Shown here: in pieces, positions 4,312 to 34,642 of the stretch
Layout: every line of letters begins with the position of its first letter
How positions within the stretch are numbered: the first letter of the stretch is position 1
Translations under genes and position numbers: made by a program
Source: Spartobacteria bacterium
GTDB taxonomy: Bacteria > Verrucomicrobiota > Verrucomicrobiia > Chthoniobacterales > UBA10450
DNA length: 64,000 nt
Direction: 5' to 3'
NCBI GenBank assembly: GCA_003167555.1
Contig: PMSN01000024.1
Span: 1-64,000, forward strand
The notes under the pieces: generated by a model
The model's input: the letters and a program-made list of their open reading frames with translations, nothing else
Told to the model about the DNA's origin: nothing
Databases searched by the model: none

Positions 4312-7300
4312 TCAAGGCGCTTTCTTTTTTTTGCTGGCCTCTTCCTTGAAGAGGTCCCGAATGAGATCGAAACCAGGATCATGGAGTCCACCGGCTTCCA
4401 ACTTGGTGAGGTCTTCGGTGATGGCTTGTTCCCAGATCTCTCCCGAGGTTTCATTGAAGATTTCTCCAATGTGTTTCTTGTAAATCTCCCTGGCTTCCTC
4501 GGTGCGGCCCAGCAAGAGAAGAGCGTGCGCGCGGTCCTCGTCCGCCTGCAGTGAAGTCGGCTTTAGTTTCAAGGCAGTTTCGGCGGAGTCCAGGGCGCCG
4601 GCAAAGTCCCTGGCCTTGAGTTGGGTCCAGGCGCGCTCGGCGTAGTGTGTTGGCAAGCTGACCTGGCGCTGATAGCTATCGGTAATGTTTTGCTCGAGCA
4701 GGTCGATGAGAGTCGTTTTTTTCAAGATGGCTTCATGCCAGCGTTTGTTCGCGAAGGCGTCGTCAAAGCTAGTCGTGAGGCGTGTGATCTCGCCGGCGTA
4801 ATCGCTGATAACACGGAGGCCCCCGGTGAAGCGCTCCGTATAAAGAGGAAGATTTTCGCTCGCAAAACTCTCGCCCGGCACGACCATCGTGCCATCGGGA
4901 AGAACCTGGAGCAGTTCATAGAATAACTTGTCACCGGTGGCAATCGCGCACCGGGCATTCCATTTGCCGTCGGGTTGTTCTTCCAGCTTCAAAGGAGCGA
5001 TGAGGGAAGCCACGGCTTTGCGCTGCTCTTCGCTCGCGTCATGGAGCCAGAGAAGGTCGTTGACGCTGTCCAGCACTCGAAAGGTTCCGAGATAGGTCTG
5101 GCTCGCACCGGCCCAGAAGCGCAGATAGGATTCCGCGCGGTCGGAGCTTTCCAGTTTTAGAATAAACTTGGCGTTGCTCTCGTTGATCGAAGGGGCGGTG
5201 CCGTCGAGATGGATGATATCCTTCTCCCGGCGAAGGTAAGTCAGGATGCCCTTGACATGGTTGGCCCTTCCCACTTCGACTTCATACAGCGTTGTCTTGT
5301 CATAAAAGTCCACAGCCAGGGAGCGGAAACGGAGAAGGTCGGATTGGGCAAAGTCCTTCGCGATACTTGAATTCTTGAGGAGCTTCTTTTCCTCCTCCTG
5401 CTCGTTGCTATCCAGGATATGCCAGTTGCCGGGAATAAGAGGCGCCGCGACCCAATCTGGTGGCCTCTCCACTTCGACAATCCGTCCACTCTTGAGCTTG
5501 GAATTCGGAGGGAAGAGCAAAGTGCCAGGCGCAATCTCCGCAGCCGCTTCGTCGATCCTGGCGATAAGAGTCGTCGCGCCCGGAGTTTTCCCCAGTTCCT
5601 TCATGAAATCCTGAGCCCAGGTATGAATGGACTTGAGGCTGTCGGAAATATCAATATTCAAAGGATCCTGATCGAAAGCGCGCTTGCCGACGTCGGCGGC
5701 ATTCTTCAGCGCATCGGCCGCACCGGGGAGGTCGCCTTGCTTGCGCAAGGTATCCGCGAGTTGCCAATATTTTTGCGCCTTCTCTTTCAAGAGGGTAATG
5801 CTTTTTGGGAAACGAACCAATCCTTCATCGAGGGCCTCGAGCGCAGCTTGAGAAGTAGCGGCCGCGTTCGCTTTGTCTTCTTTCGCCATGTAAGCGCCAT
5901 TGAGCCACCCCAGCGATTGGGCGAGGTACATGTAGCGGTCTGGCTTGGTGGATGTTTTGGCAATGCGCTTGCGGATCTCGATTGCGCTAAGATAAGCCTT
6001 GATCGCCGGATCGTAGTGGCCTGCCAGGCTATGGCTGGCGGCGGTTATCTCCTGCGAAAGGGCGACTACTTCCTGAAAGAGAGCTTTGTCTCGCACCGGC
6101 GGGGGAACGTGTTCGATTAAGTCGGCGGCCTGGGTGCAGAAGGAGATCGCTTGTTCGGAATCTGCCTTCTCCTGGAGGAGATCGATGACCGCCATTCTAA
6201 TAAAGAGGTAAGCCAGGGCCCGTTGATCTTCCCATTGACCTGGAGCTTGCCGAAGCAGGTCTTCAAGGCGTTTGCGCGCGTTATCCATTTCGCTCATCGC
6301 TTCGGCATACTTTTTTTGAGTGAGAAAAAGCTCACCCAGTTTGTAATGGCAGTGCGCTATATACCAACGATTGCGCGACCAGGATGGCTGACTCTGTCCA
6401 ATCTTTTCAGAGACCTGGAGGGCCTGCTCCATGGATTCCCTGGCTTTGGCCAATTGTGCATCCTCGAATTTCTTCCATTGGTCGCCGCTCTGCTTGGAAG
6501 CGACCCTTTGTTGATAGAGAGCGCCCTCGGCGGCGTGGCTCTGGACCAAAAAGAACTGCCAGGCGAGGTTGTCCTTATCCAGGCCGCACAGGATGTCCGC
6601 GTCTTTGATGGCCTTGCGCACCTGCTGCTCTGTCTTCGACGATGGGACGGAGGCATTCATCATCCGGAAGCTCTTGGCGCAGGCGTGTTCCTCGCTTCGA
6701 GTTTTCCAAAGGAGATTATCGGGATGCTTTGTGCTGGCAGCCTCCAAAATGTCGTCCGCCTGCTTGAAGGATTCCTCCGCGGCCGTGTCGTTCTCATCCT
6801 GGCTCAAGCCAATCCCGGAATAGGCGCGGACTTTGACGTAGTCCATTAGCTCCGAAGGGGGAGACTTGGCGGCTGTCTGGAGAACACGCTGAAAGATCTC
6901 GATGGCTTCGGTCATGGAGGAACTTTGACGCTTGATATTGCCCAGCTCCAGTTGCGAGAGAATAGCAATGCGGTTCGCCTCATCGCTTTGCGGACCAGTC
7001 GAGAAATCTTTCGTTAGGTCGACCGCTGTTTGTAGCTCTCGCTCTGCTTCGGTGAGCTGACCGGTCTCCGTGAGCCCTCGGCCGAGCGCAAAATGCGCGG
7101 CGGCGCGGATAAGGGGCACCGGAAACTCGTTCTTAGCCGAAGATTGAAGCTCGTCGGCCTTCTTCAGCGCGTCGTGCGCGTCCTTGAGTCCTTCCTCGAA
7201 TCTGCCATGAAAATAGAGAATCTCGGCCGCGAGCGAGAGAGCGTGCGCGCGTGTCTCGATGAGTCCCTCCGATTTGAGTTGGGCCGCGTCGCCGGTCATC

Positions 7301-8823
7301 CTTTCCATGGCAGCGGAGATCCTGGCCGCTCCGCCGGGTGCGGGATTGTCCAGCTCCGCGCGCAAGGTTCTTACCGTTTGAGTGGCCTCTTTCTCAGCGC
7401 GCTTGACCAGGCGTTGGTGAGTCCAGACCGCATAACCGAGAGCGATTGCCGCCAGAACGAGGAGGCCGGCGAAAGCAGCGGCCAGCTTGCTGACACGCGA
7501 GAGCTTGCCGCGCATCTCCGCCTCGCGCGCGGCGGCCAGCTCCACCTGCTTGCGCTGGTAATGTTCGGCCCGGTCCGCGCGGACGACATCGGCCAGGGTA
7601 TCGTGAGTTAGTTCGAGCCACTTCACGTTGCCGGTCGTTTCGCGCTGCACAATCCGGCGATCGATCAGGGTAGTAACAATCTCCGGCGACATCCCGTGCT
7701 TGGTCAGCGCATCTTCTTCCGCGATCCGGTTTCTCGCGCCGGAAGATGTAAGCAGGCAATCCTCGATGAACTCGCGGACGGCCCCGTCCATACCTTCGAG
7801 ACCGCGCCGATAAAAATCCTGAAAGATTTCCGCGGCTTGGGCGTTACCTACCAGCTCGGCCGTGATCTTATCCTGACCCGCCTGGATGCGCCGGTTGTTA
7901 AGTTCCTGGAGAATAACACTGAGCAAGGCAGGCTCGATGGCGCGTTTACCGACCTGGGCGCGAGTTACTTCACTTTGAAGGCGGGACCTTTCCGAAGAAG
8001 AAACAAAGTCAACGATGCGCAGCGCCACCTGCTCCTCCACCAGATGGCCGCCTGGTTTCAGGATAACCTCCATGGCTTGCTCGCCGTTAAGGGGTAGAAG
8101 CCGAAAGCGGTTGAACATGATCGTGCGCAAGCGCTCTCGCAGTCCTTCAAGATCGGGCAGGAAATCCTCGCGCAAGGTCAGGACAACACGGTAGTCGGTC
8201 CGCTCCAGATCGTAATTGCGGGCCACGGCGCGGTCGGCATCGAAACGTTTCAGGAGCGCGGCCGGCGGCCGGTTCTCGACCAGGTCTTCCAGCTCAGCCA
8301 GGAAGGAGCTGGTCCGAGCGGCGCGGACAGGATTAGACTGGCCCACCGTCAACAGCTCCTCGAACTGGTCGAAGATAAGGATCGGCCTAACGAGTCGATT
8401 TTGACTGTCCCACCAGTCGCCATCCTTCTTGTGGAAGTATTCCCACAACGTTTCGGCGCGGACAGGCTTGGGCGCTTCGATTTCTTCCTCGGCCAGGACT
8501 TCCTCGATGCGGACTTCGACCTGGTCTTCGAGCGGCGGCGCTTCCTCGGCGTGGTTCAACCGGATGTAGACAGGGATAAAGTGCGACTCCCGCAGCAGGG
8601 GCGAAACGCCCGCGCGGAGAATGGAACTTTTCCCAAGGCCCGACTTGCCGAAAAAAACGGTGACCGTTTCCTGACGGATAACGCGTGCCAGTTCCGTTAC
8701 TTCGCGTTCCCGGCCAAAGAAGAAGGAATGATCGGCCTCGGTGAAGCTAATGAGCCCTGGCCAGGGATGGTCCTTATCGAGATGAATCTCGTCACGTTCC
8801 CGGCCGCTCGCTTCTGTGACCAT
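4312..8823 (-). CDS. nSTAND1 NTPase with transmembrane helix and TPR sensor region
   Basis: 1503 residues. The N-terminus has the nSTAND1 entry motif (PWPGLISFTEADHSFFFGRE, residues 21-40), Walker A GKSGLGKSS (59-67), Walker B ILIFDQFEE (148-156) and the winged-helix end ELTHDTLADVVRADR (403-417). A membrane helix follows at about 446-466, then hundreds of residues of TPR-like helical pairs to about 1080, a beta-rich segment and a last TPR block near the C-terminus. STAND proteins oligomerise on ligand recognition and activate a linked effector; here the likely effector is the SIR2-TIR protein encoded 6 bp upstream. The TPRs are the probable sensor, and membrane anchoring suggests surveillance at the envelope. 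Confidence 0.85.
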   Translation of the reverse strand: MVTEASGRERDEIHLDKDHPWPGLISFTEADHSFFFGREREVTELARVIRQETVTVFFGKSGLGKSSILRAGVSPLLRESHFIPVYIRLNHAEEAPPLEDQVEVRIEEVLAEEEIEAPKPVRAETLWEYFHKKDGDWWDSQNRLVRPILIFDQFEELLTVGQSNPVRAARTSSFLAELEDLVENRPPAALLKRFDADRAVARNYDLERTDYRVVLTLREDFLPDLEGLRERLRTIMFNRFRLLPLNGEQAMEVILKPGGHLVEEQVALRIVDFVSSSERSRLQSEVTRAQVGKRAIEPALLSVILQELNNRRIQAGQDKITAELVGNAQAAEIFQDFYRRGLEGMDGAVREFIEDCLLTSSGARNRIAEEDALTKHGMSPEIVTTLIDRRIVQRETTGNVKWLELTHDTLADVVRADRAEHYQRKQVELAAAREAEMRGKLSRVSKLAAAFAGLLVLAAIALGYAVWTHQRLVKRAEKEATQTVRTLRAELDNPAPGGAARISAAMERMTGDAAQLKSEGLIETRAHALSLAAEILYFHGRFEEGLKDAHDALKKADELQSSAKNEFPVPLIRAAAHFALGRGLTETGQLTEAERELQTAVDLTKDFSTGPQSDEANRIAILSQLELGNIKRQSSSMTEAIEIFQRVLQTAAKSPPSELMDYVKVRAYSGIGLSQDENDTAAEESFKQADDILEAASTKHPDNLLWKTRSEEHACAKSFRMMNASVPSSKTEQQVRKAIKDADILCGLDKDNLAWQFFLVQSHAAEGALYQQRVASKQSGDQWKKFEDAQLAKARESMEQALQVSEKIGQSQPSWSRNRWYIAHCHYKLGELFLTQKKYAEAMSEMDNARKRLEDLLRQAPGQWEDQRALAYLFIRMAVIDLLQEKADSEQAISFCTQAADLIEHVPPPVRDKALFQEVVALSQEITAASHSLAGHYDPAIKAYLSAIEIRKRIAKTSTKPDRYMYLAQSLGWLNGAYMAKEDKANAAATSQAALEALDEGLVRFPKSITLLKEKAQKYWQLADTLRKQGDLPGAADALKNAADVGKRAFDQDPLNIDISDSLKSIHTWAQDFMKELGKTPGATTLIARIDEAAAEIAPGTLLFPPNSKLKSGRIVEVERPPDWVAAPLIPGNWHILDSNEQEEEKKLLKNSSIAKDFAQSDLLRFRSLAVDFYDKTTLYEVEVGRANHVKGILTYLRREKDIIHLDGTAPSINESNAKFILKLESSDRAESYLRFWAGASQTYLGTFRVLDSVNDLLWLHDASEEQRKAVASLIAPLKLEEQPDGKWNARCAIATGDKLFYELLQVLPDGTMVVPGESFASENLPLYTERFTGGLRVISDYAGEITRLTTSFDDAFANKRWHEAILKKTTLIDLLEQNITDSYQRQVSLPTHYAERAWTQLKARDFAGALDSAETALKLKPTSLQADEDRAHALLLLGRTEEAREIYKKHIGEIFNETSGEIWEQAITEDLTKLEAGGLHDPGFDLIRDLFKEEASKKKKAP

Positions 8824-8829
8824 AGACCT

Positions 8830-10227
8830 TTAACTCCCGGCTGGCTTTGCCTTCTGGTAAAGCGTTTGGAGGCGATCGAGTAACTCCGCGTCCGGCGTTT
8901 CCGAAAGCATCTTAGTACACTGGATGCGTTTGAATTCGTCCGGGATCTTCGCCTGAGCGGGATCGAGGTTATCGATCAAGATCGGAAAGAGAAATTGCCG
9001 GTCCGAGCCGGTGAAATGCGGCAACCGTTCCAAAGCCCAACTCCATTCCATCCGAAAGAAACCGTCCGGCCGCGACTCCGTGGTTTGCGAGAGGAGCGGC
9101 AGAAAAACCGAGCAGGTATTGATGTAACGCCGGATCTTCTTCGAGTAATCATCGCCGCCTTCGAGCGCGCGTTGGTCGAGCCAGACGTCCACATCGCGCG
9201 CGACCAAAGCATCGCGAATGGCGAGGGCCACGTCCTGATCGCGCGACACAGCGCCGGTGGCGTCAGTCCTACAGTAACTAATGAAGACCGCATTCTGCGC
9301 CATAGGTCTGCCATCCGTGGGCATGGCGGAGGCGGGCTTCACCTCCTGCTTGCCGAAGCGTTCCTGCCAGCGTTCCGCCAGCTCGAGGACAAACTGGGTC
9401 GGACCCAGCTCGTCGATCACTTCGGTGTTGATGGTGAAGTTCCTGAGGAAGAAACGCAGTTGCGGGTCGTTCTTCGCCTCGGAGATGTATTGCTTCGCTT
9501 CTCCCTGGTGCAGCGATTTCTGCCGGGACATCCGCAGAAAAATGCGCGTGAGCCAATCGGGAAAGCTATTGCCGAGCATGAGCAGGGGACGGTCATATAG
9601 TTCGCTGAAAATCCGCTTCGGCCGATACTCGGCGGTCTGGAGCGCGTGGAGGTATTCGACGATGTCGCCTTCGGTCAAGGCAAACTGCAAAGGCGTCTTG
9701 TAGTTGCCGAAGCACTGGAAGACAACCGGCCGACCCGTCGCCAACTGATCGGTGATCTGCGATTCGGTCGGAACATTCTTCGGCGAGTAAGCGATCACCT
9801 CAGTCCGCTGTTTCATTCCCTGAAAGCGTTCTTCGTTCAGGGCGCGCTCCATGAGATCGTCAAAGGTGGTGCTGACAAAAAGATTCAGGTGCGTGATTTT
9901 CGCCAGCGCACGCAAAGCCTCGGGGATGGCGGGATTCCACTGTTCGTATTCCTTGCCGAGATCGTCGTAGACGTTAAAAGGGCTATCGCGGAAATCGGGA
10001 TGCCTTCGCACCGTCGCGCTCAAGTTTCCCTGCAAGGATTCTTCGAGTTCGATGCCGCAGGAGTCGGCGTAGCGCCTCGCCAGCGCGCCATAGAGGGTGG
10101 TGCCTTCGGGTTCGCCCGGAAGCTGGAGCAATTCCTCGCCGACAATGGGCACGACGTTGCCTTTTGAGATCAGGTCGAGAAGCTGATTCCAAAAACGATC
10201 CTTCTTGCGGACTTCAATGGCGCTCAT
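8830..10227 (-). CDS. SIR2-like/TIR fusion protein, probable NAD-cleaving immune effector
   Basis: 465 residues. Residues 15-250 match the SIR2-like fold seen in defence proteins: SKGNVVPIVGEEL (21-33) stands where GAGxS is usual and FVSTTFDDLMERAL (117-130) where TTNxD is usual, followed by VVFQCFGNY where an HG motif is expected. Residues 312-450 are a TIR domain: AVFISYCRTD, a D-V-W-L-D strand, ALEGGDDYSKKI with the likely catalytic Glu356, then CSVFLPLLSQ and EWSWALE. In SIR2, the Asn and His positions look substituted, so TIR may be the active NADase and SIR2 a nucleotide-binding module. It is first in the operon, 6 bp before the STAND gene. Confidence 0.85.
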   Translation of the reverse strand: MSAIEVRKKDRFWNQLLDLISKGNVVPIVGEELLQLPGEPEGTTLYGALARRYADSCGIELEESLQGNLSATVRRHPDFRDSPFNVYDDLGKEYEQWNPAIPEALRALAKITHLNLFVSTTFDDLMERALNEERFQGMKQRTEVIAYSPKNVPTESQITDQLATGRPVVFQCFGNYKTPLQFALTEGDIVEYLHALQTAEYRPKRIFSELYDRPLLMLGNSFPDWLTRIFLRMSRQKSLHQGEAKQYISEAKNDPQLRFFLRNFTINTEVIDELGPTQFVLELAERWQERFGKQEVKPASAMPTDGRPMAQNAVFISYCRTDATGAVSRDQDVALAIRDALVARDVDVWLDQRALEGGDDYSKKIRRYINTCSVFLPLLSQTTESRPDGFFRMEWSWALERLPHFTGSDRQFLFPILIDNLDPAQAKIPDEFKRIQCTKMLSETPDAELLDRLQTLYQKAKPAGS

Positions 10228-10385
10228 ACGGACGCTGCCGTTGTGCGGCGTTGCGACAGAGTGGACTCTAAAAAAAACCGGGCGGCGGCGAAAGGAAATT
10301 CGACCGAGCCCGTTTGCCCTCGCGCTGGGGATCGTGATTTATCTCTTCTGGCAATCGACGACGGCCTGCGCAACATGTGGAGCAG

Positions 10386-11378
10386 ATGAAGAACGCAGCG
10401 CTCTTATCGCTTCTGTTCGTGGCGGCTTTTTTCTCCCGCGCGCAAGCCTTTGACGCCAACAGTGTGCGCGCCGCCGCGGCTTTTTCAGCCGGGCAGGGGG
10501 GGACGTCGTTTCTCGCGATCCAGCACGGGCAGACGCTGCTCGAACAAGGAGCACGCGAGCCGCACAAAATTTATAGCGGGACGAAAGCATTCTGGGGATT
10601 GGCTGCGCTCGCGGCGGCCGAAGATGGCTTGCTCAGCCTCGACGAGCAGGTGGCCGATGTCATTCCCGCGTGGCGAAACGATCCGCGCAAAGCCCGGGTC
10701 ACGATTCGGCAATTGCTGGATTTTTCCAGCGGACTCGAGCCGGTCTTCTCGTTGCACAACAACGATCCGGGAGATCGCGACAGCATCGCGATTCGGTCAT
10801 CACTCGTTGCCAGTCCCGGTTCGTCTTTTATTTACGGGCCGAGCGCGCTTCAGGTTTTTCATCAAGTGCTGAAGGAAAGATTGCGCGGGGAATCACCGAC
10901 GCATTATCTCGAGCGCCGCGTTCTGCACCGGCTCGGGCTCGGATCGCAGCGTTACCTCACCGATCGCGCGGGCAATCCGCTCCTCGCCGCGGGCTGGCAG
11001 TTAACCGCGCGCCAATGGGCGAGATTGGGGCAGCTCGTGCTCGCGGGCGGTTCGCCCGTCCTCAAATCCGATTTGCTCGCGAATTGCTGGCGCGGCTCGG
11101 GGGCGAATCGCGCGTTCTCGCTTGGTTGGTGGAACAATCGCGCCGCGCCAGGCGGCCGCGAATTCGATTTCGAGGACATGCTGGTTCCCAAATGGCAACG
11201 CCAAAGCTGGAGCGGCGCCTGTCTTTGTCGCGACGCCCCAAGCGATCTGGTGGCGTGCATCGGCTCCGGCTACCAGCGGCTTTATGTTATCCCATCGTTG
11301 GACCTGGTCGTCGTCCGTCAAAGCGCGGGCGGGCGCTTCTCCGACGGCCGCTTCCTGCGCTTCCTGCTCGGGAAATAA
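10386..11378 (+). CDS. Secreted beta-lactamase-family serine hydrolase
   Basis: 330 residues from the ATG following GGAGC; an in-frame GTG nine bases earlier is possible. Signal peptide MKNAALLSLLFVAAFFSRAQ. Ser64-x-x-Lys67 (SGTK) is the nucleophile motif of class C/PBP-like hydrolases, followed by VTIRQLLDFSSGLEP, a hallmark of the esterase/DD-peptidase-like (beta-lactamase, pfam00144) fold, and YGPSALQVFHQVL with the Tyr motif. The usual KTG-like third motif is not clear. The substrate is unknown; members act on peptidoglycan peptides or esters in the periplasm. It is convergent with the next gene, only two bases separating their stops. Confidence 0.8.
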   Translation: MKNAALLSLLFVAAFFSRAQAFDANSVRAAAAFSAGQGGTSFLAIQHGQTLLEQGAREPHKIYSGTKAFWGLAALAAAEDGLLSLDEQVADVIPAWRNDPRKARVTIRQLLDFSSGLEPVFSLHNNDPGDRDSIAIRSSLVASPGSSFIYGPSALQVFHQVLKERLRGESPTHYLERRVLHRLGLGSQRYLTDRAGNPLLAAGWQLTARQWARLGQLVLAGGSPVLKSDLLANCWRGSGANRAFSLGWWNNRAAPGGREFDFEDMLVPKWQRQSWSGACLCRDAPSDLVACIGSGYQRLYVIPSLDLVVVRQSAGGRFSDGRFLRFLLGK

Positions 11379-14969: not shown

Positions 14970-17591
14970 ATGAGTTTCCAAAGCGCAGCCGACATCGAAG
15001 AGGCTCTCACATCCGGCGCGGTTTCCGTGCGCGATCTCTACGCGATCTGGGAACAGCGAGAGCCCGTGCCGGAGGTGATGCCGGCAAAAGGATCGGTCGC
15101 GGCAGGCGCGGACGCGCCTCACATCGCGTGGCTGCAGGAGAAGCTTTCGCTGGCGCATCAGTTCACGAAACGCGCGCTCGAGAAAGAGGAATTCCTTCTC
15201 GTCTGCGACATGGCGCGCGAGGCGCTTCGCCTTTTGCCCGACGCAGATCCAAACAAGCAAACGGAGCTGGTTCGCGTGCGGATCGATTATGCGCGGGCCC
15301 TGACTCGTCTGGGTTTTACGCGCGATGCCCGGCGCGAACTCGAACCGTGCGCCGGCGATTCCTTTCAACCGAAACTCGACCGGTCCCTGAAAGCCGACGT
15401 GCTTCTTCAGCTTGGACACATTGTGCGCGAGGAATCGCATCAAGCCGCATCTTCAGCGGAGCGTTTCCAGACGGCGGATGAAGCGCTGGATTTTTATCGG
15501 CGCGCACTCGCCCTGGAGCCCGAGCGATTGGAAGCGTTGGTCTCCACGGCCGCGGCGGCGTTCATCACTGGCGACCTCGGCCCGCGCCGGCTCGGCCAGG
15601 CCAAAGAGCAAGCGCGCCAAATTCTCGCGCTCACCGCGCAACGCGCCAGGAACCAGGCGCCGACGGTGGAAATGGTGCGGGCTCGCGCGATTGCCAGCGT
15701 GATCCTCGGCGACACGGAAGCTGCCGCGGAAAATTACGGCGCGCTGCGAAATGTCGAGGGAGTCAAGACGAGCGATCTCGCCGACGCCCGCTTCTATGCA
15801 CGCTACCTGGCCGAAGCGCTGGGCAAACCGCGCGATTTTTTCAAGCGCGCCTTTCCGCCGCTCCAGTTGATCGTTTTCTCCGGGCATTTGCCCGACCCGA
15901 CGAAAACGCCGGTGCGTTTCCCCGCCAGTTCCATCGCGTTGGTGCGCGAGCGATTGAAGAAAAAGCTGGCGGACGCGGACGCGCGCGTTGGGATGGTGAG
16001 CGCTTCGGCCGGCGCGGATTTGCTTTTCATCGAAGCACTCCGCGCGCGCGACGGCGATGTCCACGTGATCCTTCCATGGTCGCGCGACGAATTCCGCCGC
16101 ACGAGCGTGAAACCATTCGATTTCGGCGGCCGCGCTCCGCTCTGGACGCCGCTCTTCGACAAGGCGATGAAACACGCCGCGACGATCCGCACCATCGGAC
16201 AAGTCTACGAACCGGGCAGCCCGATCGGCTGGCAGTATTTGATGGAAGTCACGGCCGGGATTGCGCTCAACACCGCGCGCGCTTCGCGTCTCGATGTGCG
16301 GCCGATGGTGTTGTGGGATGGCCAGCCCGGCCGAGGCGCGGGCGGGACCGAATCATTCCTCTCGTTTTGGCAGAGCCAGCTGCAAGAGGAAGCCATCGTG
16401 GTCAAATTACCTCCCGTGCGCTTTGTGAAAGGAAAACGTTTCGTCCCGCGCAGCGAAGGCCGGCTGGAGCGAGCAATCACGCACCAGGAAGTGAAGAGCA
16501 TGCTCTTCGGCGACATCGTCGGTTACAGCAAGTTGACCGAGCACGTCATTCCCGAGTTCGTGGATATTTTCTTGAATCGACTCTCGCAACTGGCAGCGTG
16601 CAGCAAGCATCCGCCACGTCATCTCAATACCTGGGGCGACGCCATCTACGCCGTCTTCGATTTCGCGCACGAAGCCGGCGCCTTCGCTTTGGAATTGACG
16701 CAGATGATCAAGGAAGGCGAAAGCGATTGGCTGCAAAAAGGACTTTATTGGGAGGAGCGCGTCCCCGGCGAAGCGAAACCCGTGAAACGTCCGCTCAGCA
16801 TTCGCACTGCGCTCCACACCGGGCCGGTTTTCGTGCATTACAATCCCGTTTTGCGCCAGCTCGGTTTCACCGGCTCACACGTCAGCCGCGCGGCGCGGAT
16901 CGAGCCGGTCACAAAGACGGGCGAGGTTTTCGCGAGCGAGGAATTTGCGGCGCTGGCGGAATTGGATGCGGAGATCACGCGACGGAACGCGGGCGGAGCG
17001 GCCGGTACGGGTGAGGAAGGCGGCGCGCGTTTCGTCTGCGACTACGCCGGGAGCATGCAACTGGCGAAAAGTTATCCGGGGCGCTTCCGGATTTATCGCG
17101 TGTTGCCGAAACGAGTTTTTGCCATCGAGGAACTGGCGAAGACGGCGCACGACCTCTATCTCGTCGAGGCGCGCGCGCGCGGCGAAACGCGCGAGACGAA
17201 CGTGGCGATCCGGCCATGGGAAGAATTGCCCGAAGATTTGAAGGACGCGAATCGCGCGCAAGTCGCCGATATTCCTAACAAACTTCGCCGGCTCGGATAC
17301 GAATTGGCGCCGAGCCATGGCCTGCCCGCGTCGGCCATCAAAAAGACCGACGCGCAAATCGAAGCGCTCGCGATTCGCGAACACGATCGCTGGATGAACG
17401 ATCGGTTGCGGCACGGTTGGACGTTCTCGCTCGAGCGCGACAACCTCCGCAAACATCATCCGCTTCTGGTTCCGTGGGACGAACTCTCCGAAGTCGAGAA
17501 GGACAAGGACCGCGACACGATCCGCACTTTGCCGCGCCTCATTCAGAAAGCCGGCTTCCGCGTCAGAAAACTCGCCGAGCCGTCCGCGTAA
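14970..17591 (+). CDS. TPR / SLOG-like / class III nucleotide cyclase / RyR-domain protein
   Basis: 873 residues from ATG 14970 (an upstream in-frame ATG at 14913 would add 19 poorly coding residues). Residues 1-290 are helical repeats. About 300-480 is a Rossmann-like segment: VFSGHLPDPTKTPVRFP, VSASAGADLLFIEALRARDG, VHVILPWSRDEF, VLWDG, as in SLOG-type nucleotide-binding domains. About 505-700 is a class III cyclase with LFGDIVGYSKL and NTWGDAIYAVFD carrying the two metal aspartates, and HVSRAARIEP, where the usual Asn is Ser. The last ~85 residues (EHDRWMNDRLRHGWTF, HHPLLVPWDEL, EKDKDRD) match the RyR repeat domain. The protein likely makes or senses a cyclic nucleotide; its trigger is unknown. 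Confidence 0.8.
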   Translation: MSFQSAADIEEALTSGAVSVRDLYAIWEQREPVPEVMPAKGSVAAGADAPHIAWLQEKLSLAHQFTKRALEKEEFLLVCDMAREALRLLPDADPNKQTELVRVRIDYARALTRLGFTRDARRELEPCAGDSFQPKLDRSLKADVLLQLGHIVREESHQAASSAERFQTADEALDFYRRALALEPERLEALVSTAAAAFITGDLGPRRLGQAKEQARQILALTAQRARNQAPTVEMVRARAIASVILGDTEAAAENYGALRNVEGVKTSDLADARFYARYLAEALGKPRDFFKRAFPPLQLIVFSGHLPDPTKTPVRFPASSIALVRERLKKKLADADARVGMVSASAGADLLFIEALRARDGDVHVILPWSRDEFRRTSVKPFDFGGRAPLWTPLFDKAMKHAATIRTIGQVYEPGSPIGWQYLMEVTAGIALNTARASRLDVRPMVLWDGQPGRGAGGTESFLSFWQSQLQEEAIVVKLPPVRFVKGKRFVPRSEGRLERAITHQEVKSMLFGDIVGYSKLTEHVIPEFVDIFLNRLSQLAACSKHPPRHLNTWGDAIYAVFDFAHEAGAFALELTQMIKEGESDWLQKGLYWEERVPGEAKPVKRPLSIRTALHTGPVFVHYNPVLRQLGFTGSHVSRAARIEPVTKTGEVFASEEFAALAELDAEITRRNAGGAAGTGEEGGARFVCDYAGSMQLAKSYPGRFRIYRVLPKRVFAIEELAKTAHDLYLVEARARGETRETNVAIRPWEELPEDLKDANRAQVADIPNKLRRLGYELAPSHGLPASAIKKTDAQIEALAIREHDRWMNDRLRHGWTFSLERDNLRKHHPLLVPWDELSEVEKDKDRDTIRTLPRLIQKAGFRVRKLAEPSA

Positions 17592-32185: not shown

Positions 32186-32236
32186 ATCGGATCTCGTTTC
32201 ATTTTTTTGCTTTTCCAGATAGGCTCGCCGGGCGAT

Positions 32237-34642
32237 ATGGCATCTGAGTCGGAAACCTATTCTCAACTGGAGATCGCGCATGTCTTGTTCACGGACATCG
32301 TTGGTTATTCCAAGCTGCCGATCGATCAGCAGAGCGAATTGCTCGGGCAATTGAATCAAGTGGTTCGGGGAACGGAGCAGTTCCGGGCGGCGGAAGCGGC
32401 GGGCAAACTGGTGCGGCTGCCGACGGGCGACGGCATGGCGCTCGCGTTTTTTACGAGTGTCGATGCTCCGGTGCGATGTGCGCTGGAAATTGCGGAGGCG
32501 TTGAAAAGCCGGCCGAAAATCCAGCTTCGCATGGGTGTGGATAGCGGGCCGGTCGATCAGATTGTCGATGTGAACGACCGGCCGAATGTGGCTGGGGCCG
32601 GCATCAACATGGCGCAACGCGTGATGGATTGCGGCGACGGGGGCCATATTCTTTTGTCCAAGCGCGTGGCGGCCGACCTCGCGCAATACAGCAAGTGGCA
32701 ACCACACTTGCACGACCTGGGCGAAGCGGAGGTGAAGCACGGGGTGATTGTTTCGCTCGTTAATCTCTACACCGGGGACCTGGGCAATCCGGCCACACCC
32801 GCGAAGGTGCAACGGGCGCAGCGGGCGGAGATGCTTCGTGCCCGCAAGCTCCGAGGTCGCCGCATCGGCATCGCTGCGCTGGTTCTTCTGGCCGTTCTTG
32901 CCCTTGGCGCATTCTTGTGGTCAAAGCGCACACCGGCGCCGGGAGTCGCGTCCACGACCGCGGCCGCGCCTGCGATTCCGGCGAAAAGCATCGCGGTCCT
33001 GCCGCTGGAAAATCTTTCGGACGACAAAGAGAACGCCTTCTTCGCTGACGGCATTCAGGACGATCTGCTCACGAGCCTGGCCAAGATCAAGGATCTGAAA
33101 GTGATCTCGCGCACGTCCGTGATGTCGTATCGCAACAAAGCCGCGCGCAACCTGCGTGAGATCGGGAAGGAACTCGGCGTCGCCAGTGTGCTGGAGGGCA
33201 GTGTCCGCCGCGTGGAAAATCGCGTGCTCGTGATTGTCCAATTGATCGATACCGCGAGCGACCAGCACATCTGGGCGGAGCGTTATGATCGCACCCTCGC
33301 GGACTCCATCACCTTGCAGGGTGAGCTGGCTTCCGAAATCGCAGGGGCGCTGCACGCCACCCTCACGGCTGAGGAAAAGGCGCGCGTCGAAGCAAAGTCG
33401 ACCGATAACCCGGACGCCTACGTCGCGTATCTGCGGGGCCGTGAACTGGAACTTCGTCCGGAGAGGTCGCGCGAGAATTTCTTGAGCGCAGAGAGTTTCT
33501 ACAAGCAGGCCCTTGCGCTGGATCCGAAGTTTGTTCTCGCGCGGGCGCGGCTCAGTTTGGTGCAGACGCTGCACTACGAGTATTTTGAGCAGACGAACGC
33601 CGCCCGACTGGCCGAGGCGCGGGCGAACGCGGAAGAAGCGTTGCGACTGGATCCAAATTCCGCCGAAGCGCATTCCTCGCTGGCTCGCTGTGCGCAAAAC
33701 GTCAACGATGCCGCTACCACCAGGCGTGAACTAGACGCGTCCGTGCGACTCCTCCCTAACGATGCATCCATTCTCCTGACTGCCGCGGTGACGCAGTGGG
33801 GGATGGGTTGGAACGACGAAGCTGTCGTCAATTTCAAACGCGCCAATGAGCTGGGGCCGCGGGAAGCAAAAAACTTCTATAGCTACGGAGTTCTTCTAAA
33901 GCAGATGGACCGGCAAGCCGAAGCGCGCGCGGCCCTGGATCGGGCGCTGGTGCTGGCACCCGAATCGATCTACTTTCGGTTGCAGCGGGCCAGCGCCGAG
34001 ATTTCCTGGACTGGCGATACCAGCCGCGCCCGGGCGATTCTGGCCGGTCTGCCCGCCGGACAGGATCCCGACGGCAGAGTTACTTCCGCCTACTGCACGC
34101 TCGCCATTTACGAACGCAATTTTCCGGAAGCTCTCCGGTTATTCCAGGCATATCAGGGCGAGACTTTGCCCACCGTCGATAGCGGGGGCTTCGGAGGGCA
34201 AGACTCGAAAGCATTCAACGAAGCAATCATTCGTCTCTACGCTGGCGACCACGCCCGCGCCTACGAATGTTTTGATTCCGAGAGATGGAAGGCTGAAGTC
34301 GAGGTCAGGGACAATCCGCTCTCGGCCAACCATCACGCCGGGCTGGCGCTTCTCTACGCCCAAATGGGTTGGAAAAAACCCGCCCTGGCCGAAGCAGCTC
34401 GTGCCCTGGAACTGGGACCTCCGGTCGACGTGTTTGCGAAGATCTGGTTCCATTTCAACCTGGCGCGAGCGTATGCCTGGGCGGCGGAGCCCGATTCGGC
34501 CTTGAAACAGGTGGAGCTCTTCCTCAGTTTCCCGTGGGACTACAAAGTAAACAATTTCCGTCTTGATCCGGTGTGGGATCCCTTGAGGAAGGATCCCCGT
34601 TTTCAGAAGCTGCTTGAAAGCAAAGTAGAAAGTGGAAAGTAG
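32237..34642 (+). CDS. Class III adenylate/guanylate cyclase with TolB-like and TPR domains
   Basis: 801 residues from ATG 32237. Residues 10-190 are the cyclase: VLFTDIVGYSKLPIDQQSEL, LPTGDGMALAFF, VAGAGINMAQRVMDCGDGGH, with both metal aspartates and the Asn of the purine site. A membrane helix (IGIAALVLLAVLALGAFLWS) sits at about 210-230, then a TolB/FlgO-like domain (KSIAVLPLENLSDDKENAFF, DGIQDDLLTSLAKI, RTSVMSYRN, VASVLEGSVRR) and six or more TPRs. Many soil bacteria carry this architecture; the periplasmic TPRs may sense an envelope signal and set cyclase output. The last codons and stop are formed by a heptamer repeat tract. Confidence 0.88.
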   Translation: MASESETYSQLEIAHVLFTDIVGYSKLPIDQQSELLGQLNQVVRGTEQFRAAEAAGKLVRLPTGDGMALAFFTSVDAPVRCALEIAEALKSRPKIQLRMGVDSGPVDQIVDVNDRPNVAGAGINMAQRVMDCGDGGHILLSKRVAADLAQYSKWQPHLHDLGEAEVKHGVIVSLVNLYTGDLGNPATPAKVQRAQRAEMLRARKLRGRRIGIAALVLLAVLALGAFLWSKRTPAPGVASTTAAAPAIPAKSIAVLPLENLSDDKENAFFADGIQDDLLTSLAKIKDLKVISRTSVMSYRNKAARNLREIGKELGVASVLEGSVRRVENRVLVIVQLIDTASDQHIWAERYDRTLADSITLQGELASEIAGALHATLTAEEKARVEAKSTDNPDAYVAYLRGRELELRPERSRENFLSAESFYKQALALDPKFVLARARLSLVQTLHYEYFEQTNAARLAEARANAEEALRLDPNSAEAHSSLARCAQNVNDAATTRRELDASVRLLPNDASILLTAAVTQWGMGWNDEAVVNFKRANELGPREAKNFYSYGVLLKQMDRQAEARAALDRALVLAPESIYFRLQRASAEISWTGDTSRARAILAGLPAGQDPDGRVTSAYCTLAIYERNFPEALRLFQAYQGETLPTVDSGGFGGQDSKAFNEAIIRLYAGDHARAYECFDSERWKAEVEVRDNPLSANHHAGLALLYAQMGWKKPALAEAARALELGPPVDVFAKIWFHFNLARAYAWAAEPDSALKQVELFLSFPWDYKVNNFRLDPVWDPLRKDPRFQKLLESKVESGK

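What the first reader, a model, noticed from the sequence alone, without database searches (positions are those of the whole stretch)
14970..17591. One chain combining TPR, SLOG-like, nucleotide cyclase and RyR domains
RyR domains in bacteria are linked to nucleotide-centred conflict systems. Here cyclase and putative sensor domains are covalently joined, so the protein could produce and detect a signal itself. The cyclase keeps both metal aspartates but has Ser in place of the usual Asn near the purine site, hinting at a different nucleotide or altered chemistry.
Basis: partly seen in the sequence, partly recalled or inferred. Interest (0 to 1): 0.65.

Follow-up and report, generated by a model that had tools for sequence, protein, structure and literature searches.

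The report
Cyclase fused to ADP-ribose-type signal sensors
A soil bacterium makes one long protein that joins three modules of kinds known or predicted to bind NAD-derived signal molecules to an enzyme that should make a different, cyclic-nucleotide signal, so it may relay one bacterial alarm signal into another.

Summary
The gene at 14970-17591 (+) encodes 873 aa: a TPR scaffold, a SLOG domain, a class III nucleotide cyclase and two RyR domains, the first degenerate. SLOG has no Pfam match, but its predicted fold matches YpsA (Z 18.3). The ordered core TPR-SLOG-cyclase recurs at 95 distinct loci in many phyla. RyR was joined to it at least twice, N-terminally (single) and C-terminally (tandem, this group), or sits in a separate neighbouring gene. 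The Ser at the Asn position is common in the family (52 of 99; Asn 35). The stronger oddity is family-wide: Asn and a non-Asp residue replace the purine-reading Lys and Asp, next to an almost invariant Trp. RyR-2 keeps the four ligand residues of RyDEP, the phage RyR protein that binds 2'/3'cADPR, with identical spacing. TIR genes cluster beside family members, though not beside this gene. Best reading (inferred): an ADP-ribose-type signal binds SLOG, RyR and perhaps TPR and controls the cyclase, which makes a cyclic mononucleotide acting in trans. Product, ligand and antiphage role are untested. New variant of a known kind.

The parts
14970..17591 (+). Gene for TPR-SLOG-cyclase-RyR-RyR protein, 873 aa
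   Evidence: homologues 72% (G003), 57% (G040) and 57% (L087)
15126..15818 (+). TPR scaffold, TPR-S-like, residues 53-283
   Evidence: PF20308 below cut-off; ASK1 central regulatory region Z 20.6
15855..16424 (+). SLOG domain, residues 296-485
   Evidence: AlphaFold2 pLDDT 91, YpsA Z 18.3; no Pfam family
16473..17114 (+). Class III nucleotide cyclase, residues 502-715: metal Asp515 and Asp557, Asn553 at the Lys position, Trp555, Ser639 at the Asn position, Arg643
17124..17309 (+). RyR copy 1, residues 719-780, degenerate (Tyr for the adenine-stacking Trp)
17349..17570 (+). RyR copy 2, residues 794-867, with His805, Trp808, His830, Asp847 at the spacing of RyDEP H75/W78/H100/D117
   Evidence: PMC13232231
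8830..10227 (-). SIR2-TIR fusion protein, 465 aa: candidate NAD-processing partner, only loosely linked; its relatives neighbour the core in L052, L081, L102, L159
4312..8823 (-). nSTAND1 NTPase with TPRs, 1503 aa, next to the SIR2-TIR gene: candidate invader sensor, only loosely linked

Best explanation
The protein is a signal-controlled nucleotide cyclase. The TPR, SLOG and RyR modules receive an NAD+-derived, ADP-ribose-type signal, most simply one made by TIR or SIR2-TIR proteins of the cell. Binding changes the packing of the cyclase dimer, which then makes a cyclic mononucleotide (base not fixed by the sequence) that acts on receptors elsewhere in the cell. The C-terminal RyR pair either adds a second binding site or, like phage RyDEP, sequesters or hydrolyses the input signal and so ends the response. 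Shown: domain make-up and fold, intact metal and transition-state Arg residues, replaced purine-reading residues, complete RyR ligand residues in copy 2, recurrence of the core in many phyla, repeated joining of RyR, and TIR clustering at family loci. Inferred: ligand identity, direction of signalling, product, and a role in defence.
For: RyR copy 2 has His805/Trp808/His830/Asp847 at exactly the 0/+3/+25/+42 spacing of RyDEP H75/W78/H100/D117, the residues that bind and cleave 2'/3'cADPR. SLOG is the 3'cADPR sensor of ThsA (PMC11204291), and the predicted fold matches SLOG proteins, TRPM2 among them. RyR appears N-terminally (15 fused loci, plus L080 and L081), C-terminally in tandem (4), or as a separate neighbouring gene (L083, L109, L133, L156); the C-terminal pair is closer to the RyR pair of TrkA_N proteins than to the N-terminal form (70-78 against about 42 bits), so the join happened more than once. 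TIR genes: 18 of 171 flanks within 1.5 kb against 3 of 238 at 4.5-8 kb, p = 3.7e-5. In L097, L098, L105, L113, L116, L142 and L145 an RyR-TPR-SLOG-cyclase gene is followed within 300 bp, same strand, by a TIR gene whose glutamate at the catalytic position is kept. None of the TIR proteins scanned (TPR, WD40, BioY, NB-ARC or no other module) shows a cyclic-nucleotide-binding domain, which favours TIR as source rather than receiver. SIR2-TIR plus nSTAND1 accompany the core in L052, L081, L102 and L159 and lie 4.6 kb from it here. A Priestia plasmid groups PycTM, a cyclase/TPR-S protein, RyR and TIR.
Against: No ligand or product is known. The four RyR residues are common to PF02026, including animal RyRs that bind adenine nucleotides, so they do not single out cADPR; the 72% orthologue has Asn for His830. 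TIR neighbours are not significantly more frequent at RyR-bearing cores (9 of 17 against 13 of 50, p = 0.07). In the window the SIR2-TIR region is 96.5% identical to a copy in G003 that is not next to G003's core gene, while the core genes are only 72.9% identical, so this linkage may be chance. The window's three closest homologues have no TIR neighbour. No PycTM gene in this or the other related genomes searched. Not found in viral contigs; no plasmid or phage record covers most of it.
Confidence: 0.5

Rival explanations
1. A housekeeping energy- or nucleotide-state sensor: RyR and SLOG bind ordinary adenine nucleotides (ATP, ADP, AMP), and the cyclase makes cAMP or cGMP for general regulation, without any role in conflict.
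For: Human RyR3 Repeat12 has been solved with ADP and dantrolene (9l9b, listed) and LOG proteins with AMP. The gene stands alone among unrelated neighbours in the window and its three closest homologues, is under steady purifying selection, and is not on phages or viral contigs. The genome has eleven cNMP_binding matches, including an MscS channel and a histidine kinase.
Against: TIR, SIR2-TIR, nSTAND1 and DUF4062 neighbours at other family loci, a PycTM neighbour in the Priestia relative, and loss of the purine-reading Lys and Asp.
Confidence: 0.25
2. One reading: the cyclase product is read by the SLOG and RyR domains of the same chain, as self-sensing or feedback.
For: Covalent joining of maker and candidate sensors; fusion and split forms of TPR-SLOG and cyclase genes.
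Against: No SLOG or RyR domain is known to me to read a 3',5'-cyclic mononucleotide; known ligands are ADP-ribose-type or adenine nucleotides; TIR clustering points to an outside source. RyR is absent from most members.
Confidence: 0.1
3. A Pycsar-like enzyme: it makes cUMP or cCMP on phage infection for an effector encoded elsewhere, and the extra domains sense the phage directly.
For: Purine readers are replaced. Positions 513, 553, 555 and 560 correspond to those that set base choice in EaPycC and AnPycC (PMC11224242). PycTM lies beside a cyclase/TPR-S plus RyR set in Priestia. One sister cyclase weakly matches a PycC model (18.8 bits).
Against: No PycC match for this protein; no PycTM in the related genomes searched; the residue set differs from those published in the paper read.
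Confidence: 0.1
4. The cyclase is catalytically dead and only binds a nucleotide.
For: Ser for the transition-state Asn; two relatives (L049, L084) have lost both metal aspartates.
Against: Both Asp and the Arg are kept here and in about 97% of members, and the cyclase has the lowest dN/dS of the domains that could be measured (0.048).
Confidence: 0.05

Closest known systems
RyDEP, phage RyR-domain glycosidase or sponge of 2'/3'cADPR (PMC13232231)
   Same: PF02026 domain; four ligand residues at identical spacing in copy 2; a two-fold dimer in RyDEP and a tandem pair here
   Different: RyDEP is a stand-alone phage evasion protein; here RyR is the tail of a bacterial cyclase and copy 1 is degenerate; activity untested
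Thoeris (ThsB TIR plus ThsA SIR2-SLOG)
   Same: SLOG fold; TIR genes beside family members; SIR2-TIR gene nearby
   Different: Output module is a cyclase, not SIR2, in the same chain; the SLOG has no detectable sequence match to described SLOG families in Pfam
Pycsar (PycC plus PycTM or PycTIR)
   Same: Class III cyclase with non-purine selector residues; one relative next to PycTM
   Different: No PycC model match, no adjacent effector, added SLOG and RyR modules
TPR-S proteins and the ASK1 central regulatory region
   Same: TPR scaffold fold, Z 20.6
   Different: Output is a cyclase, not a kinase; sub-threshold to PF20308
YpsA and SLOG-SLATT proteins
   Same: SLOG fold; a SLOG-SLATT paralogue in the same genome (G000:C3) matches the SLOG region
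   Different: Those have no cyclase or RyR

Membership tests
RyR domain family PF02026 | Score above the curated cut-off of 27.4 bits | tested here: met
   67.3 bits; also RyR chains in PDB to 5e-30
RyDEP-type cADPR-binding RyR | His/Trp/His/Asp ligand residues at 0/+3/+25/+42 | tested here: met
   H805, W808, H830, D847 (residues from PMC13232231); the set is general in PF02026
RyDEP-type cADPR-binding RyR | Binding or cleavage of 2'/3'cADPR | not testable with these tools
   needs a biochemical assay
SLOG superfamily | SLOG Rossmann-like fold | tested here: met
   YpsA Z 18.3, rmsd 2.3 over 155 residues, well above the next rows, themselves SLOG/DprA/LOG proteins
Described Pfam SLOG families | Significant Pfam sequence match | tested here: not met
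   none for the window domain; 53 members scanned, only one weak DNA_processg_A hit, E 0.083
Class III nucleotide cyclase | PF00211 above cut-off and two metal Asp | tested here: met
   28.6 bits against 21.9; Asp515 and Asp557
Purine-specific class III adenylyl or guanylyl cyclase | Lys and Asp (or Glu and Cys) base readers | tested here: not met
   Asn553 and Gly632 at these positions
TPR-S PF20308 | Score above the curated cut-off of 27.6 bits | tested here: inconclusive
   21.1 bits here; relatives reach 77 bits
Pycsar | Match to a PycC model | tested here: not met
   no PADLOC match at E up to 1; the library does hold PycC
Pycsar | Adjacent PycTM or PycTIR effector | tested here: not met
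   flanking genes are an amino-acid permease and a GH25 enzyme; no PycTM in the genome
Pycsar | Cyclic pyrimidine product | not testable with these tools
   needs an enzyme assay
Thoeris | TIR gene paired with SIR2-SLOG or TM-macro ThsA | tested here: not met
   SLOG here is joined to a cyclase; the nearest TIR gene is 4.6 kb away

The most novel reading that the evidence does not exclude
A nucleotide-signal relay: TIR-made ADP-ribose-type immune signals switch on a cyclase that issues a second, cyclic mononucleotide signal, with a built-in RyR module that ends the response by consuming the input signal. This would join Thoeris-type and Pycsar-type signalling in one widespread family.
Probability: 0.22. 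Interest if true: 0.87.

Novelty: new variant of a known kind. Interest (0 to 1): 0.62.

Why it matters
The role of bacterial RyR domains is open; a May 2026 preprint showed that phage versions bind or cleave cADPR immune signals. This family places RyR, SLOG and TPR modules on one cyclase, next to TIR genes at many loci. If the reading is right, it gives bacterial RyR domains a physiological role and shows one class of immune nucleotide signal being translated into another. The two-gene loci with TIR make the idea directly testable.

Tried and rejected
Search of viral contigs with a family alignment found nothing; phage records hold only short RyR matches and plasmid records only partial matches, at most 24% of the query. 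NCBIfam and PADLOC gave no match for the protein. The first alignment was too diverse for a pattern search; a narrower one worked. The SLOG profile against PDB sequences gave nothing significant, so fold comparison was used. The idea that the window's SIR2-TIR and nSTAND1 genes form an operon with this gene was dropped: four genes intervene, and the region has a near-identical copy elsewhere in a sister genome. The idea that neighbouring TIR proteins are cyclic-nucleotide receptors was not supported: no cNMP-binding domain among the listed Pfam matches of those scanned (for the WD40-rich ones only the best 25 matches are listed). RyR-bearing loci are not significantly richer in TIR than others (p = 0.07). 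Two key papers on TPR-S and SLOG systems (J Bacteriol 2020 e00365-20; NAR 2015 gkv1267) are not in the library, so earlier description of parts of this architecture cannot be excluded.

Full report
What is there. The open frame at 14970-17591 (+) encodes 873 residues. Pfam finds RyR (67.3 bits), Guanylate_cyc (28.6 bits) and, below cut-off, TPR-S (21.1 bits). A homologue in the same genus is 72% identical over the whole length, two others 57%. AlphaFold2 on an alignment of 53 window and homologue sequences gives pLDDT 87.6 and pTM 0.84. The cyclase part matches CyaB (Z 21.8) and the TPR part the ASK1 central regulatory region (Z 20.6). The middle domain, folded alone (pLDDT 91), matches YpsA at Z 18.3 and then DprA, ShosA, LOG and TRPM2 SLOG domains, although no Pfam family recognises it. 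Before the Pfam RyR lies a second, degenerate copy, so the tail is a RyR pair, as in the two-fold Repeat12 of animal receptors described in PMC13232231.

The family. Searches of whole genomes and of one-genome-per-species contigs gave 95 distinct loci with SLOG and cyclase in one ORF, nearly all with the TPR part in front. They span Verrucomicrobia, Cyanobacteria, Proteobacteria, Planctomycetes, Chloroflexi, Poribacteria, Acidobacteria and others (titles). In a few loci TPR-SLOG and cyclase are separate overlapping or adjacent genes (L054, L055, L059, L079, L152). RyR is optional: one copy at the N-terminus in 15 fused loci plus L080 and L081, a pair at the C-terminus in the window and three homologues, or a separate gene next door (L083, L109, L133, L156). 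The C-terminal pair scores higher against RyR pairs of TrkA_N proteins (70-78 bits) than against the N-terminal form (about 42 bits). RyR was therefore probably joined to this core more than once, which argues for a shared function.

The cyclase. Over 99 aligned members, Asp515 is kept in 96, Asp557 in 97 and Arg643 in 97. More telling: the purine-reading Lys is Asn in 84, the residue two before the second metal Asp is Trp in 92, and the second purine reader is rarely Asp. These positions set base choice in Pycsar cyclases (PMC11224242), but the residues here differ from the sets given there, so the base remains open. Two relatives have lost both metal Asp (L049, L084). In the window lineage the cyclase has the lowest measurable dN/dS (0.048), which argues that it works.

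The RyR tail. The preprint PMC13232231 shows that phage RyDEP, a PF02026 protein, binds and cleaves 2'/3'cADPR through H75, W78, H100 and D117, and that several homologues bind without cleaving. RyR copy 2 here has H805, W808, H830 and D847, the same spacing. 19 of 25 RyR domains fused or adjacent to a core have all four (counted). Caution: these residues are general in PF02026, and the 72% orthologue has Asn at the third.

Neighbourhood. TIR genes lie within 1.5 kb of 18 of 171 family flanks against 3 of 238 at 4.5-8 kb (p = 3.7e-5). Seven RyR-bearing cores are followed on the same strand, within 300 bp, by a TIR gene; the glutamate at the TIR catalytic position is kept, and those scanned carry TPR, WD40 or other modules but no cyclic-nucleotide-binding domain. 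SIR2-TIR plus nSTAND1 accompany the core in L052, L081, L102 and L159. In the window these two genes are present at 4312-10227 (-), 4.6 kb away, but a 96.5% identical stretch sits elsewhere in a sister genome whose core gene is only 72.9% identical, so here the linkage may be chance. A Priestia plasmid groups a PycTM effector, a cyclase/TPR-S protein, a RyR protein and a TIR protein, a second hint that such sets feed a Pycsar-type output. No PycTM was found in the window's genome or its searched relatives; possible receivers include an MscS channel and a histidine kinase with cNMP-binding domains.

How it most likely works. SLOG senses 3'cADPR in ThsA (PMC11204291), RyR binds 2'/3'cADPR in RyDEP, and the TPR-S scaffold has been predicted to recognise NAD+-derived signals (Burroughs and Aravind 2020; recalled, paper not held). 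All three are joined to a cyclase whose active form is a dimer (class III cyclases, own knowledge). The simplest reading is an ADP-ribose-type input and a cyclic mononucleotide output, with RyR as extra sensor or terminator. Every step after 'the domains are there and intact' is inference. The main rival is an ordinary nucleotide-state sensor making cAMP or cGMP.

Novelty. All parts are known kinds; none of the papers I could find describes this combination, but two likely places could not be read. I call it a new variant of a known kind.

Noticed in passing
window 7426-10891: Stretch holding the nSTAND1 NTPase part, the SIR2-TIR gene and the start of a beta-lactamase-like gene is 96.5% identical to G003:C2 in a sister genome, whereas the cyclase gene is only 72.9% identical: recent exchange that leaves out the nSTAND1 TPR part.
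   Followed up: partly
L062:7932-9449 (G000:C3): A SLOG-SLATT protein (SLATT_1, SLATT_3 matches) in the same genome, about 2.6 kb from a second SIR2-TIR gene and near another TIR gene.
   Followed up: no
window 32207-34642: Another cyclase with C-terminal TPRs, a more ordinary adenylyl/guanylyl cyclase architecture.
   Followed up: no
L060:9601-11697, L063:9276-11459: TPR-S plus SLOG proteins with a different N-terminal domain (VVMPFG...NVWYELGVRHAL, TIR/deoxyribosyltransferase-like by eye) and no cyclase.
   Followed up: no
L049:8473-10536, L084:8318-10414: Family members whose cyclase lost both metal aspartates: likely pseudo-cyclases.
   Followed up: partly
L057:7114-9780: RelA_SpoT plus weak LSDAT_prok (SLOG) plus RyR protein, beside a TrkA_N plus RyR-pair protein.
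   Followed up: no
L099-L101, L118, L122, L126: Magnetospirillum-type members have C-terminal extensions of a few hundred residues (up to about 570); Pfam names none in the one scanned (L099).
   Followed up: partly
L067-L071: RyR-less family members in the same genus sit in a repeated cluster with a second SLOG gene, a subtilisin-like peptidase gene, a sigma-factor-like gene and, in some, DUF4062 or CHASE2-like genes.
   Followed up: no
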